A DNA stretch of 64,000 bases from Prochlorococcus sp. AG-418-K17 (lineage in GTDB: Bacteria > Cyanobacteriota > Cyanobacteriia > PCC-6307 > Cyanobiaceae), in the NCBI GenBank assembly GCA_003214055.1, contig QCMD01000001.1, positions 124,001 through 188,000 on the forward strand. The letters run 5' to 3'. The translations under genes were made by a program, and so were the position numbers. This document shows positions 29,014 through 34,215 of the stretch, piece after piece; the first letter of the stretch is position 1, and each line of letters starts with the position of its first letter. Below the pieces are notes generated by a model. It had not been told where the DNA came from. It ran no database searches and saw only the letters and a list, made by a program, of their open reading frames with translations.

Positions 29014-29085
<72 letters not shown>

Positions 29086-29111
29086 TTTTAATTCAATTTC
29101 AAGAACAATCA

Positions 29112-29136
29112 AGAGACTTTATGAGTCTCTTTTTTT
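29112..29136 (+). terminator. Rho-independent terminator after tRNA-Asn, inside the island
   Basis: AGAGACT-TTATG-AGTCTCT then T run. Confidence 0.8.
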
Positions 29137-29210
29137 GTGCCTGCAAAAAGGTTTTCAAGAAATAAGGAATTGCATAAGATCTTACAATTAATCATAACTG
29201 AGCCCCTCTT

Positions 29211-29252
29211 CGTGTGTCTTTTGTGTGTCTTTTAACCAGGACTGTGTGCCTC
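29211..29252 (+). repeat. Left-end cluster of TGTGTG(C/T)CTT-like repeats
   Basis: CGTGTGTCTT 29211, TGTGTGTCTT 29222, TGTGTGCCTC 29243. Confidence 0.6.
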
Positions 29253-29298
29253 TGATTCGTGGCAATAGTGAGTGTAAATTTAAGATTGTAGTAAGCGT

Positions 29299-29613
29299 TT
29301 ATTTGAACTTATTATCGTAGGCTTTTATTTCTTTTTTAGTTAGTTGTCTTTGACTGCATAAATAACCTTTATCAGACTTATTAATATCACTTGGGATTAA
29401 TTCTGGATTTTTAAAATATTCATTTCCATGACCTTTTAGATTTAACTTTTGAACTTTTCCTCTTACGTCCATATGCCAAATTTGATGAACTGCTTTTCCG
29501 TCTTGGCATCTTTCTTCAATGTTAATTCTTCCATGATTGACTATATAAACAACTCTTGCCTGAGCAGATGGTATTAATCCAAATGAAAGAATTAAAAATA
29601 ATAAGTGTTTCAT
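29299..29613 (-). CDS. Small secreted protein (MKHLLFLILSFGLIPSAQA signal peptide)
   Basis: ATG at 29613 overlaps previous stop (ATGA); supplied ORF start at 29634 less likely. Confidence 0.65.
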   Translation of the reverse strand: MKHLLFLILSFGLIPSAQARVVYIVNHGRINIEERCQDGKAVHQIWHMDVRGKVQKLNLKGHGNEYFKNPELIPSDINKSDKGYLCSQRQLTKKEIKAYDNKFK

Positions 29614-29840
29614 TGGAAAATATAAAACTCGCAAAATTCTTTTAATAATTCATTGTCTGTGTAATCTTCTCTTTTATCGTCAAAAATTCCTATCTTATAT
29701 TTTTTAAAAAAATCATTGTACGAAATAACCCCAGCAGATGCATCTGCACAATCAATTTTTCTTTGTTGGATAGTTTTATTTGGATTATTGCAACCAAATA
29801 TAAATACTAATAAAAAAGGTGTAAGTAGAAAGCGTTTCAT
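29610..29840 (-). CDS. Small putative lipoprotein
   Basis: MKRFLLTPFLLVFIFGCNNP lipobox-like; ATGA overlap with upstream gene. Confidence 0.65.
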   Translation of the reverse strand: MKRFLLTPFLLVFIFGCNNPNKTIQQRKIDCADASAGVISYNDFFKKYKIGIFDDKREDYTDNELLKEFCEFYIFQ

Positions 29841-30094
29841 TTTAAATATCCTCCAGAATTACAAGTTTTATAAGCAGTAGCCTGTATATTATCAGGATAA
29901 TTTTGCCCCCATTTTATTGTTGCAATAGCAGCGTTTATATCTTTATTCTTCCAGATTCCACCATCAGCATTTAATCCAATTTTGCAAAGGGCTGATAAAG
30001 CTTTATCTTCTGATTCAGTTAAGGTTTTCTTTGAAACAGATTCAGCATTAATTGGATTAAAAAATAATATTGACAATAAAATTAGATACTTCAT
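29837..30094 (-). CDS. Small secreted protein
   Basis: Signal peptide MKYLILLSILFFNPINAES; ATGA overlap. Confidence 0.65.
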   Translation of the reverse strand: MKYLILLSILFFNPINAESVSKKTLTESEDKALSALCKIGLNADGGIWKNKDINAAIATIKWGQNYPDNIQATAYKTCNSGGYLK

Positions 30095-30630
30095 TTTCCT
30101 TTCTTAAAAGCAATTAAAGCAGCAACTATAAACCACAAAACAAATCCACTAATAGCAATAGGAATAAAGTATGGAATTTTCATTAATAATTGAAGAATCT
30201 TTATGAATAAAAACAACCCACCAACTGCAAGAGGGGGCGTGTAGATTAAAGCAAATGCATCAAGTTTCTTTGTCTTTATATACTCTTTAATACAAAAATA
30301 TAAAATTCCAATTAGAAAAACTATTATTCCAACTATAAAGAAACCTTTTTGAAAAGCTAAAATCACACTCCCTAAAAAATATAGAGGTGGAAGCCAAAAA
30401 ATAATTTCTTTTTTTATTCCTTTTAAACCATCAGATTTGTAAATATCAATAAAGTAATTACCAAATTGTCCAACGATTGCAAATAACCATAAAAATATTA
30501 AACCAAAGCCAATCAAACCAACTACCCAAATAGGTAATGAAGTAATTAATAATCCAGGAAGCCAAAGTATTAATGCAAACATTCCAAGAAACAATATTCC
30601 AACTATTAAATTTTCATATTTCTTCTTCAT
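30091..30630 (-). CDS. Polytopic membrane protein
   Basis: 179 aa with about five hydrophobic segments. Confidence 0.7.
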   Translation of the reverse strand: MKKKYENLIVGILFLGMFALILWLPGLLITSLPIWVVGLIGFGLIFLWLFAIVGQFGNYFIDIYKSDGLKGIKKEIIFWLPPLYFLGSVILAFQKGFFIVGIIVFLIGILYFCIKEYIKTKKLDAFALIYTPPLAVGGLFLFIKILQLLMKIPYFIPIAISGFVLWFIVAALIAFKKGK

Positions 30631-30631
30631 T

Positions 30632-30673
30632 AAAAAAGAGGGTTTTATCCCTCTATGTTAGGTCGACTGTCAA
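30632..30673 (-). promoter_or_regulatory. Leader cassette copy 1: TTGACAGTCGA ... GAGGG-ATAAAA-CCCTC hairpin, U run, ATG
   Basis: Hairpin 30638-30653, A6 on + strand 30632-30637, TCGACTGTCAA 30663-30673; matches copy at 32163. Confidence 0.65.
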
Positions 30674-30677
30674 ATTA

Positions 30678-31007
30678 TTAAAAATAGAAATTTTTATATT
30701 TATATTTGATATTATTTTCTAATTTTTCCCATTCCTTAACACCATAAAATTTATTTTTTACGGAGATATTTTCTTTGCCAACATATTGCCTTGTCTGAGA
30801 TTCATAAATACATCTTCTACTAAATGAACTATCTGTATAAATTTTATCTGGAACATATGTAGCAATCCATTCATACGTATAAGAAAAACCTTTATCTTTC
30901 CAATCTTTACAAGCCCTATCAGCCTCATACTTAGAATTATATTTTTTACTAGAACATGAAGATAGTAAAAGAGTTATGAGAAATGGAAAGATTAGTAAGC
31001 GTTTCAT
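30678..31007 (-). CDS. Small putative lipoprotein
   Basis: MKRLLIFPFLITLLLSSCSSK lipobox. Confidence 0.65.
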   Translation of the reverse strand: MKRLLIFPFLITLLLSSCSSKKYNSKYEADRACKDWKDKGFSYTYEWIATYVPDKIYTDSSFSRRCIYESQTRQYVGKENISVKNKFYGVKEWEKLENNIKYKYKNFYF

Positions 31008-31011
31008 TTAA

Positions 31012-31524
31012 TCACCACATATAAGGAAATTTACATTTTTCCCCTTCAATTTTAAAGAAGCCTTCTGCAGCATTTATTAGCTTTAAATTATCAGGATCTG
31101 TTCTTTTTTCCCATTCTTTTGGGTTATACCAAATATTAGATCCAAGTTGTGGCATAAGCATTCTTTTCTGCCCTTTTTTACGATCTTTAACAGGAGTACC
31201 CTTAGCTACTTGATTACCAACAAAAAATACTGCCAATCCATGACCAGGATATTTTTGGTGCTTAAAATCTTCCCATGAAATATCGGGGTCTTTATCTTCA
31301 CTAATGGTATATCTATGCCCACCGTAACCATTCATATGAAAGAAAGTTATACGATACATTGATTTATCTTTATAGGTAATGCGACCTTTCATACCTAAAT
31401 ACTCAGCATCCATTTTGATAACAACATCATTATCTAATTCGCTAGTTATTGTGCAAAGCTTTTCAGCATTAACAGCAGTAGGTAAAGCGAGAGCAGCTAG
31501 TAGTGGGAGTAGTAAGCGTTTCAA
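31012..31524 (-). CDS. Secreted protein of unknown function
   Basis: MKRLLLPLLAALALPTAVNA signal peptide; TTG start overlapping upstream TGA. Confidence 0.65.
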   Translation of the reverse strand: MKRLLLPLLAALALPTAVNAEKLCTITSELDNDVVIKMDAEYLGMKGRITYKDKSMYRITFFHMNGYGGHRYTISEDKDPDISWEDFKHQKYPGHGLAVFFVGNQVAKGTPVKDRKKGQKRMLMPQLGSNIWYNPKEWEKRTDPDNLKLINAAEGFFKIEGEKCKFPYMW

Positions 31525-32162
31525 TTTACCCGTTTAGAATATTCTTGATGTCTTTTTATAAGTTCTTCTTCATCACCTAAAAGGTTTTCTCTCTCAAATT
31601 TATCTTGTTTATTGCCTTCCCATAAAAGAAAGAAGAATAATCCAAAATATAGTCCGACAAATATATATTTACTTACACCAATTGCGTTTAAAAAAGCCAA
31701 TCCAATACCTATTACAGGAGATAAAATCAAAAGAAAAAATCCAGAACTTAGCGCAATATTGAATTTACTATTGTGTCTCATAAAGAACTTTTTAAGTTCT
31801 GTAGCTTTTGAATATTTTTCTCTTCTTTCTTTAAATTTCTGAAGCCAAAAAGCATCCCTATCTTGCTTTATAACAATGTCAGTATATTTTTTTTGACTTT
31901 TTAAGATATCTCTTACTTCGTCTAAATCTTTTTTAGTCAGTTTGAAGTAATCACTTTGAGGTATTCTTTTTTTTGCAAATAATTTATAGAGTTTATTAGT
32001 TTGTTCGTAATAATTAATAACCCAATAATTCATAACTAAATCGTTTTGTTCTCCCACTCCTAAATCTTCAAATTTTTTACTAGTATCTCGACTTGCACCA
32101 AATGCATAAACCTTCGTTTCTTTATTACGAACTACACAAACGTAACCAGTATCTCCAAACAT
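31521..32162 (-). CDS. Unknown protein with two central TM helices
   Basis: 213 aa; hydrophobic FNIALSSGFFLLILSPVIGIGLAFL and YIFVGLYFGLFFFLLW. Confidence 0.7.
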   Translation of the reverse strand: MFGDTGYVCVVRNKETKVYAFGASRDTSKKFEDLGVGEQNDLVMNYWVINYYEQTNKLYKLFAKKRIPQSDYFKLTKKDLDEVRDILKSQKKYTDIVIKQDRDAFWLQKFKERREKYSKATELKKFFMRHNSKFNIALSSGFFLLILSPVIGIGLAFLNAIGVSKYIFVGLYFGLFFFLLWEGNKQDKFERENLLGDEEELIKRHQEYSKRVN

Positions 32163-32205
32163 AAAAAAGAGGGGTTTATCCCTCCAATTTTAGATCGACT
32201 GTCAA
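32163..32205 (-). promoter_or_regulatory. Leader cassette copy 2: TTGACAGTCGA ... GAGGGATAAACCCCTC hairpin, U run, ATG
   Basis: Hairpin 32169-32184, A6 on + strand 32163-32168, TCGACTGTCAA 32195-32205. Confidence 0.65.
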
Positions 32206-32236
32206 TCAATTAAATTTTAACGTTTCATCTTAGCAA

Positions 32237-33751
32237 TTAAAAAATAGAAGTTTCTATTCCACTCTTTTCTTTGAGTTCAGTGAGGGAATGAACTTCCATT
32301 CTTGAGGTGCACCAGTTCTCGGTTGTTCCTTTTACAAGTCCTATTTCTTTCCTTAACCACCTTTTTAATGCTTTTTCTGTATCTGCAACTATTTGCCCTG
32401 AGTGAGGACCGGTCGCCTCAATTTTTTGCCATCCAAACGAAGCATGATATTTCATTCTTTGTGGTAAATCATTCGTGATTCCTAACTGTTGCTCACCTGG
32501 TCTTTTCATGAGATAAAACCAAGCAGGTTTAAGAGGGTTATACCCTGACTCGGCACATGTAGGACATCCACTTTTATTACCTGTTCGGCTGTTTGGACTA
32601 ACAATCCACTTATGCCCTTTATCGCATTTCCAAGGCATTATTTTTTGTGTTCCAGGCATGAGAATCGATGGATCCCAACCATCTGCTTCCTTTGCAATTT
32701 CTGGAAACCTTGTTTTTAAGTCATTAAAACCAACCAACAGTTTCTTCCCTGCGCAATAGGGACATTTCGCTCCATTCCCAGCTCTGTTTTCAATAACCGC
32801 TTTCCATGTATGTCCTTTTGTACACTTCCAAGTCATGGATTTATGACTACCTGCAGTAATAGTTGATGGATCCCAACCATCTGCTTCTTTAGCAACATCT
32901 GGAAAGAGACTTTTTAGATCGTTGAACCCAACCCACACTTTCTTACCTGCACAATAAGGACAACCTCTGCTGCCTCTTTTCGCAGTCCTTTCAGTTAGTT
33001 TTGACTGATAATTATGCCCTTTCTTACAAACCCAAGACATTCTCTTCATTCCCCCTGCCAGAACAGTTGATGGATCCCAACCATCTGCTTCTTTTGCAAT
33101 CTCTGGGAAGAGAGTTTTTAGATCATTGAACCCAACCCAAAGTTTTCTTCCAGCACAATAAGGGCAACCTGTTTTGTCTCTTCCAGTCCGTTCATTTACT
33201 GCTGATTTATAAGTGTGATTTTCTTTGCATCTCCATGGCATCTTCTTTTTAGTTCCTGCCAGAACGGTTGATGGGTCCCAACCATCTGCTTCTGCTGCAA
33301 TCTCTGGGAAGAGAGTTTTTAGATCATTGAACCCAACCCAAAGTTTTTTGTTTCCGCAATAGGGGCAACCATTATCACAGTTAGTTCTGCTGTTTGGGCT
33401 AACAGTCCAGGTATGTTCCTTATTACATTTCCATGGCAACCTCTTCATGGTTCCAGGTAATACAGTTGTGGGATCCCAACCGTCTGCTTGTGCTGCAATC
33501 TTTGGATATCTGGTCTTTAAATCGTTAAATCCATTGAGTACTTTTTTGTTTGCACAGTAAGGACAACCTGTTTTGTCTCTTCCAGTTCTACTGTAAGGAT
33601 CTGCTTTCCATGAATGCCCTAAGTTGCATGTCCAGGGCATCTTTTTATTACTACCTGGCAAAAGACTTGAAGGATCCCATCCATCTGCCTCTTCTGCCAC
33701 TTCAGGATGAAGCGTTGCTAAATCATTTATGCCAACAAGCAGTTTTGCCAT
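32237..33751 (-). CDS. Six-module zinc-ribbon (DUF4379-like) repeat protein with GIY-YIG-like C-terminal domain
   Basis: Six copies of GFNDL..P.IA.EADGWDPS...G....M.WKC..GH.W...R....GCPYC; C-term AWFYLMKRPGEQQLGITNDLPQRMKYH...TEKALKRWLRKEIG. Confidence 0.8.
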   Translation of the reverse strand: MAKLLVGINDLATLHPEVAEEADGWDPSSLLPGSNKKMPWTCNLGHSWKADPYSRTGRDKTGCPYCANKKVLNGFNDLKTRYPKIAAQADGWDPTTVLPGTMKRLPWKCNKEHTWTVSPNSRTNCDNGCPYCGNKKLWVGFNDLKTLFPEIAAEADGWDPSTVLAGTKKKMPWRCKENHTYKSAVNERTGRDKTGCPYCAGRKLWVGFNDLKTLFPEIAKEADGWDPSTVLAGGMKRMSWVCKKGHNYQSKLTERTAKRGSRGCPYCAGKKVWVGFNDLKSLFPDVAKEADGWDPSTITAGSHKSMTWKCTKGHTWKAVIENRAGNGAKCPYCAGKKLLVGFNDLKTRFPEIAKEADGWDPSILMPGTQKIMPWKCDKGHKWIVSPNSRTGNKSGCPTCAESGYNPLKPAWFYLMKRPGEQQLGITNDLPQRMKYHASFGWQKIEATGPHSGQIVADTEKALKRWLRKEIGLVKGTTENWCTSRMEVHSLTELKEKSGIETSIF

Positions 33752-33795
33752 ATCTCTATGTTACCCACTTTTTCTTACACACTTGAACTAATTTA

Positions 33796-33816
33796 TGTGT
33801 GCCTTATGTGTGCCTT
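33796..33816 (+). repeat. Right-end pair of TGTGTGCCTT repeats, 11 bp apart
   Basis: 33796-33805 and 33807-33816 identical. Confidence 0.6.
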
Positions 33817-33877
33817 TTCTCTTTAATATCTTGCTTCTTCTTCGTCAAAACTCTTTATAACTGGTCTTTAAAGACTA

Positions 33878-33903
33878 GTTCGAATCCCGCCCGGGGAGTT
33901 TTA
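33878..33903 (+). repeat. att-like direct repeat, distal copy
   Basis: Identical to 29065-29090. Confidence 0.93.
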
Positions 33904-34118: not shown

Positions 34119-34215
34119 AAAAAAAAAGGTCCCCTTAAGGGACCCTGGGTGTTATCTGATTTAGTGTTACCTTGTTTCCACTTAATCAGATAAATCACTC
34201 CTTCACACAGAATTA
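34119..34215 (-). ncRNA. Structured ncRNA candidate, possibly Yfr2/Cyano-1-like
   Basis: Minus strand: TTATCTGATT-A-AGTG[GAAACAAGGTAA]CACT-A-AATCAGATAA (34152-34193), then terminator GGTCCCTTAAGGGGACC+T run (34119-34144); contains GGAAACA. Confidence 0.6.

What the first reader, a model, noticed from the sequence alone, without database searches (positions are those of the whole stretch)
32237..33751. Six zinc-ribbon modules fused to a GIY-YIG-like nuclease domain
Six ~68-aa modules (GFNDL..P.IA.EADGWDPS....WKC..GH.W....R...GCPYC) precede a C-terminal AWFYLMKRPGEQQLGITNDLPQRMKYH...TEKALKRWLRKEIG segment resembling GIY-YIG folds. A tandem DNA-binding array plus nuclease on a tRNA-targeting island could be a homing, targeting or anti-competitor enzyme. 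Near-identical DNA in several modules suggests copy-number change by recombination. Zinc-ribbon/DUF4379 naming is from recall; nuclease function is inference.
Basis: partly seen in the sequence, partly recalled or inferred. Interest (0 to 1): 0.72.

Follow-up and report, generated by a model that had tools for sequence, protein, structure and literature searches.

The report
Modular zinc-finger nuclease in Prochlorococcus island
A gene in an inserted DNA segment of a marine Prochlorococcus encodes six repeated zinc-finger-like modules joined to a DNA-cutting domain; it is a chromosomal cousin of selfish nucleases known from phages, and it travels as cargo on small inserted elements, sometimes as their only gene.

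Summary
The 504-aa ORF at 32237-33751 (-) has six DUF4379 treble-clef modules (66-68 aa spacing) and a C-terminal 106-aa domain. AlphaFold on 10 homologues gives a confident GIY-YIG-type fold (pLDDT 93.6), with the catalytic Tyr, Arg, His and Glu invariant. The second Tyr of the motif is always Gln ("EQQ[LIF]G"). Homologues occur in Prochlorococcus, Synechococcus and two phage contigs; counted arrays hold 1, 3, 5, 6, 7 or 9 modules. The closest characterised kind is the phage T5orf172/MUG113 endonuclease with tandem CapR/DUF723/DUF4379 zinc modules (PMC10448857). This is a divergent, largely chromosomal branch of it. The gene is island cargo. Here it lies in a 4.8-kb insertion at tRNA-Asn, bounded by a 26-bp repeat and empty in relatives. 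At argJ, two relatives are the sole gene between 27-bp repeats of the argJ 3' end. Most likely it is a site-specific DNA endonuclease of homing-endonuclease descent. Whether it acts as a homing enzyme or as a weapon against phages or rival elements is undecided. Cleavage and DNA binding are inferred, not shown.

The parts
32237..33751 (-). 504-aa ORF: six DUF4379 modules plus C-terminal GIY-YIG-type nuclease domain
   Evidence: 41.6% G+C against 29% for the stretch holding the other island genes
33554..33733 (-). DUF4379 module 1 (residues 7-66)
33356..33532 (-). DUF4379 module 2 (residues 74-132)
33155..33334 (-). DUF4379 module 3 (residues 140-199)
   Evidence: 79% DNA identity with module 4
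32951..33133 (-). DUF4379 module 4 (residues 207-267)
32753..32929 (-). DUF4379 module 5 (residues 275-333)
32555..32731 (-). DUF4379 module 6 (residues 341-399)
   Evidence: modelled with the nuclease domain, pLDDT 88.2
32240..32557 (-). GIY-YIG-type nuclease domain (residues 399-504): Tyr413, Gln422-Leu-Gly424, Arg432, His436, Glu459
   Evidence: AlphaFold2 pLDDT 93.6; Pfam GIY-YIG on 8 of 11 homologues, best 3.3e-5; hhalign to phage MUG113 domains 98%
29014..29085 (+). intact tRNA-Asn(GTT), insertion site of the island
29065..29090 (+). proximal copy of the 26-bp attachment-type direct repeat (3' end of tRNA-Asn)
33878..33903 (+). distal copy of the 26-bp direct repeat; the insertion is 29091-33903
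   Evidence: empty sites in relatives
29212..29233 (+). tandem 11-bp pair GTGTGTCTTTTGTGTGTCTTTT at the proximal island end; possible recombinase arm site
   Evidence: role inferred
33797..33818 (+). tandem 11-bp pair GTGTGCCTTATGTGTGCCTTTT at the distal island end, 46 bp upstream of the nuclease gene
   Evidence: role inferred

Best explanation
The protein is a site-specific DNA endonuclease of the modular T5orf172/MUG113 homing-endonuclease kind. The N-terminal array of treble-clef zinc modules reads an extended DNA target, and the C-terminal GIY-YIG-type domain cuts next to it. Array length and module content change by recombination between modules, which changes the target. It is carried as cargo on recombinase-type insertions (tRNA-Asn here; argJ, and next to tRNA-Thr or tRNA-Ser, elsewhere), sometimes as the only gene of the unit. 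The cut most likely serves its carrier element, either by homing into alleles that lack it or by destroying phage or rival-element DNA. Shown: domains, fold, conserved active site, copy-number change, insertion boundaries, phage relatives. Inferred: zinc and DNA binding, cleavage, target, and biological role.
For: Six DUF4379 modules. Across 46 modules Cys36, His41 (45/46), Cys65 and Cys68 are conserved, a treble-clef ligand set. AlphaFold fold and viral Foldseek hits to CapR, T5orf172 and homing-endonuclease proteins. Catalytic Tyr, Arg, His and Glu invariant in 11 homologues. Pfam GIY-YIG on 8 of 11 members, T5orf172 on 3. A phage protein (L113) aligns collinearly over three modules plus nuclease, 45% over 306 aa. 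Vibrio phage relatives lie directly upstream of or overlapping a group I intron in the terminase gene. The nuclease domain is under purifying selection: dN/dS about 0.1-0.33 where dS could be estimated, though most dS values are near saturation. Module number: 1, 3, 5, 6, 7, 9. A chimera at the argJ site joins one module of this type to an array with a different, restriction-endonuclease-like nuclease. Insertion boundaries and empty sites. Phage precedents: PMC10448857 and Odn, PMC8263062.
Against: No biochemical data. The second motif Tyr is Gln, so activity could be altered. The window's own domain scores below the Pfam GIY-YIG cut-off (16.1 against 22.6 bits), and no solved structure matched. 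No intron or intein lies at the window gene, and the unit boundaries look like recombinase attachment sites rather than a homing site. Arrays from the shared argJ site show no obvious common string at the variable positions (by eye).
Confidence: 0.75

Rival explanations
1. Selfish homing endonuclease. The nuclease cuts the empty allele of its insertion site or a nearby conserved site, and repair copies the gene or its whole unit across.
For: Vibrio phage relatives adjoin group I introns in terL. Two phages carry the same 3-module gene at the same place, its ATG overlapping the upstream stop. Patchy distribution, 7 of 200 genus genomes, and a broken copy (L015) fit a gain-decay cycle. No modification gene is needed. 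Single-gene units at argJ.
Against: Units are bounded by attachment-type repeats with tandem arm-like pairs, which already explain mobility. The gene occurs at several unrelated sites. Arrays from the shared argJ site show no obvious common string at variable positions.
Confidence: 0.4
2. Weapon against phages or rival elements. The array aims the nuclease at foreign DNA, as the phage nuclease Odn does against a phage satellite.
For: Odn, a T5orf172 nuclease, gives sequence-specific immunity against a parasite element (PMC8263062). CapR zinc domains also serve in phage-satellite conflict (PMC10448857). A neighbouring unit at argJ in L011 holds a C5 methyltransferase and a TdeIII-like restriction enzyme. 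Modules diversify at the same columns within and between arrays.
Against: No PADLOC match to the nuclease domain. No linked immunity gene in the single-gene units. No target identified.
Confidence: 0.4
3. Nuclease-dead DNA-binding regulator, as CapR and I-TevI's repressor mode show is possible.
For: CapR evolved from the same kind of zinc domain into a repressor (PMC10448857). The motif Tyr is replaced by Gln.
Against: Tyr, Arg, His and Glu are all retained in 11 of 11 homologues, and the domain is under purifying selection.
Confidence: 0.12
4. Decaying passenger gene with no current function, caught after insertion.
For: Rare and patchy; one broken relative.
Against: Intact 504-codon frame; low dN/dS among homologues where estimable; active-site conservation.
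Confidence: 0.08

Closest known systems
Phage T5orf172/MUG113 (GIY-YIG) homing-endonuclease genes with repeated CapR, DUF723 or DUF4379-type zinc modules (PMC10448857)
   Same: Tandem zinc modules N-terminal, GIY-YIG-type nuclease C-terminal, recombination between modules, conserved linker C..SG[YF].P..P.W.Y.
   Different: Largely chromosomal in picocyanobacteria; DUF4379-type arrays of up to nine modules; Gln replaces the second motif Tyr/Lys; carried on attachment-site-bounded units.
DUF4379/CapR-like arrays with an EDxHD/Vsr nuclease in phage group II introns (PMC12350094)
   Same: Arrays of related zinc modules with a C-terminal nuclease.
   Different: Different nuclease fold and intron setting. 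An array of this general plan with a restriction-endonuclease-like domain sits at the argJ site in L073.
Odn, origin-directed nuclease of phage ICP1 (PMC8263062)
   Same: T5orf172 nuclease domain aimed by a fused DNA-binding part; used in element conflict.
   Different: RepA_N DNA-binding domain instead of a zinc-module array; phage gene.
Plant EFFECTOR OF TRANSCRIPTION proteins (PMC6585611)
   Same: Variable number of zinc- and DNA-binding repeats with a GIY-YIG domain.
   Different: [quoted passage not shown] no relation of the repeats was tested; likely convergent.
Tycheposons of Prochlorococcus (as described in PMC10872708)
   Same: Insertion at a tRNA gene in Prochlorococcus with cargo genes.
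   Different: No recombinase gene in this 4.8-kb insertion or in the single-gene argJ units.

Membership tests
DUF4379 (PF14311) | Profile match above curated cut-off | tested here: met
   221.8 bits against 24.5, six stretches
DUF4379 (PF14311) | Conserved zinc-ligand pattern | tested here: met
   Cys36, Cys65, Cys68 in 46/46 and His41 in 45/46 modules
DUF4379 (PF14311) | Binds zinc and DNA | not testable with these tools
   inferred from family descriptions only
GIY-YIG superfamily (T5orf172/MUG113 branch) | Fold | tested here: met
   AlphaFold pLDDT 93.6 with the expected element order; viral Foldseek hits to T5orf172/CapR proteins; no PDB hit
GIY-YIG superfamily (T5orf172/MUG113 branch) | First Tyr, Arg, His, Glu of the active site | tested here: met
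   invariant in 11 homologues
GIY-YIG superfamily (T5orf172/MUG113 branch) | Second motif Tyr (YIG), or Lys as in KIG | tested here: not met
   Gln in 11 of 11
GIY-YIG superfamily (T5orf172/MUG113 branch) | Profile match above curated cut-off | tested here: inconclusive
   16.1 against 22.6 bits for this protein; 8 of 11 homologues match, best 3.3e-5; hhalign to phage MUG113 domains 98.1%
Homing endonuclease | Cuts a long specific site and promotes copying of its own gene | not testable with these tools
   no cleavage data
Homing endonuclease | Gene inside or next to an intron, intein or its cognate site | tested here: inconclusive
   no intron at the window gene or in the cyanobacterial relatives scanned; met by Vibrio phage relatives. 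Free-standing homing genes need no intron, and the cognate site is unknown.
Tycheposon | Inserted at a tRNA gene with a repeat of its 3' end | tested here: met
   26-bp repeat and empty sites
Tycheposon | Encodes a tyrosine recombinase | tested here: not met
   none in the island; the only PF00589 match in the held genome (81% complete) lies on another contig

The most novel reading that the evidence does not exclude
A naturally modular DNA reader-plus-cutter with a decipherable module-to-DNA code: modules in one array share a scaffold but vary freely at a few columns (42, 44, 46, 48, 49) on the second strand of the zinc hairpin and the turn after it. It is packaged as single-gene, recombinase-less insertion units that colonise argJ and tRNA sites in picocyanobacteria, with nuclease types exchanged at one site.
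Probability: 0.2. Interest if true: 0.8.

Novelty: new variant of a known kind. Interest (0 to 1): 0.48.

Why it matters
It places a phage-type modular nuclease as cargo in the chromosomal islands of one of the ocean's most abundant phototrophs, with relatives in phages that could be the source. The variable array makes a testable case for modular DNA recognition by treble-clef zinc modules. The single-gene units bounded by argJ-end repeats suggest a small cassette-like insertion system that lacks its own recombinase.

Tried and rejected
Hidden intron at the window gene: Rfam found none. Dividing the window island at the anticodon-like copy 32193-32211: rejected as an attachment site, because the surrounding 32157-32254 stretch matches a dispersed repeat found in many genus genomes and lies just upstream of the neighbouring gene's start. 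PDB sequence and fold searches gave no meaningful hit. PADLOC and NCBIfam gave no useful name; their weak hits fall on module stretches. Two early viral-contig scans found nothing; a broader alignment found two phage contigs. A class-wide search gave one other match at the threshold, with three stop codons inside it, set aside. Shared target among argJ arrays: no obvious common string at the variable columns, judged by eye on three arrays only.

Full report
What is there. The ORF at 32237-33751 (-) encodes 504 aa. Pfam reports six DUF4379 treble-clef modules, E 7.7e-67, starting at residues 7, 74, 140, 207, 275 and 341. Modules share exact DNA blocks of up to 39 nt and up to 79% overall identity. 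The gene has 41.6% G+C against 29% for the stretch holding the other island genes.

The C-terminal domain. Alone it matches GIY-YIG only weakly (16.1 bits, cut-off 22.6). Homologues settle it: 8 of 11 match PF01541, best 3.3e-5, and 3 match T5orf172. Profile comparison with phage MUG113-type domains gives 98.1% probability, including the linker C..SG[YF].P..P.W.Y. AlphaFold2 on ten homologues gives pLDDT 93.6, pTM 0.84, with order strand 12-19, strand 22-28, helix 31-39, strand 44-52, helix 54-72. Foldseek against viral models finds T5orf172, CapR and homing-endonuclease proteins; against the PDB, nothing significant. Tyr413, Arg432, His436 and Glu459 are invariant, while the second motif Tyr is Gln422 in all. 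Pairwise dN/dS is about 0.1-0.33 where estimable, with most dS near saturation.

Relatives. In 200 genus genomes 7 match, the window's included. A scan of 84,980 species found nine loci, all Prochlorococcus or Synechococcus. Module counts are 1 (a broken copy), 3, 5, 5, 6, 6, 7 and 9, with three more cut by contig ends and one with divergent, CapR-like modules. Two viral contigs carry a 3-module version between a PD-(D/E)XK nuclease and a dCTP deaminase gene; one aligns collinearly at 45% over 306 aa. More distant phage relatives have CapR modules and a MUG113 domain; in two Vibrio phages the gene lies directly upstream of or overlapping a group I intron in the terminase gene.

How the array varies. 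Over 46 modules the scaffold and zinc ligands are constant. Columns 44, 46, 48, 49, 57, 63 and 67 differ about as much within one protein as between proteins, while columns 6, 8, 9, 25, 32, 47 and 52 are more alike within a protein. In the model of module 6 the variable columns fall on the second strand of the hairpin and the short helix or turn after it. That these residues read DNA is inference.

How it is carried. The window island is bounded by a 26-bp repeat of the tRNA-Asn 3' end, with a tandem 11-bp pair near each end. Relatives have the flanks joined. No recombinase lies inside, and the only PF00589 match in the held genome is elsewhere. Downstream of argJ (identity by Pfam) the 27-bp end of the gene is repeated at unit boundaries. 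In L010 and L013 the nuclease is the only gene between two repeats; in L011 it shares its unit with one small ORF, and a neighbouring unit holds a methyltransferase with a restriction enzyme. Each of the three units inspected has one tandem pair after the first repeat and two before the last, and the pair sequence is alike within a unit and differs between L010 and L013. In 18 of the 30 loci inspected the argJ site is empty. Two relatives lie next to tRNA-Thr and tRNA-Ser. In L073 a chimera at the argJ site starts with a module of this type but carries a different, restriction-endonuclease-like domain.

Reading. The architecture, recombination between modules and phage distribution match the T5orf172 homing endonucleases of PMC10448857, and a related nuclease, Odn, gives sequence-specific immunity against a phage satellite (PMC8263062). 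I therefore read it as a site-specific endonuclease of that descent carried as cargo, with homing and weapon roles about equally likely. It is not filed as a homing endonuclease: the defining activity is untested, its cognate site is unknown and no intron is present.

Noticed in passing
L010 7846-9175; L011 8701-15554; L013 1661-6118; L015 8386-13522; L073 3022-5279; L106-L112: Cassette-like units downstream of argJ: a 27-bp repeat of the argJ 3' end (GAAATAAATAGCGAATATACTACATAA) bounds units of one to three genes, in tandem in some genomes, with tandem arm-like pairs. No integrase was recognised among the listed ORFs, though this was not searched for systematically. No description was found in the papers searched.
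   Followed up: partly
window 30628-30674, 31461-31527, 32157-32254: Short stretches at gene boundaries of the island recur many times in genus genomes; the last includes a near-copy of the tRNA-Asn anticodon arm (32193-32211) and a hairpin-like segment upstream of a gene start.
   Followed up: partly
G000:C2:31817-32233 and equivalents: A roughly 389-aa tyrosine recombinase with a weak PF00589 match appears in most genus genomes searched; a candidate helper for the recombinase-less units.
   Followed up: no
L073 3209-5170: DUF4379 protein with seven modules around a restriction-endonuclease-like domain; its first module is of the type found in the window protein.
   Followed up: partly
L014 9158-10978: 606-aa relative with divergent DUF4379/CapR-like modules, the same Gln-type GIY-YIG domain and a Cys-rich C-terminal extension.
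   Followed up: partly
window 34144-34212 (-): Rfam match to Cyano-1 sRNA, 43.4 bits, just beyond the distal island end.
   Followed up: no
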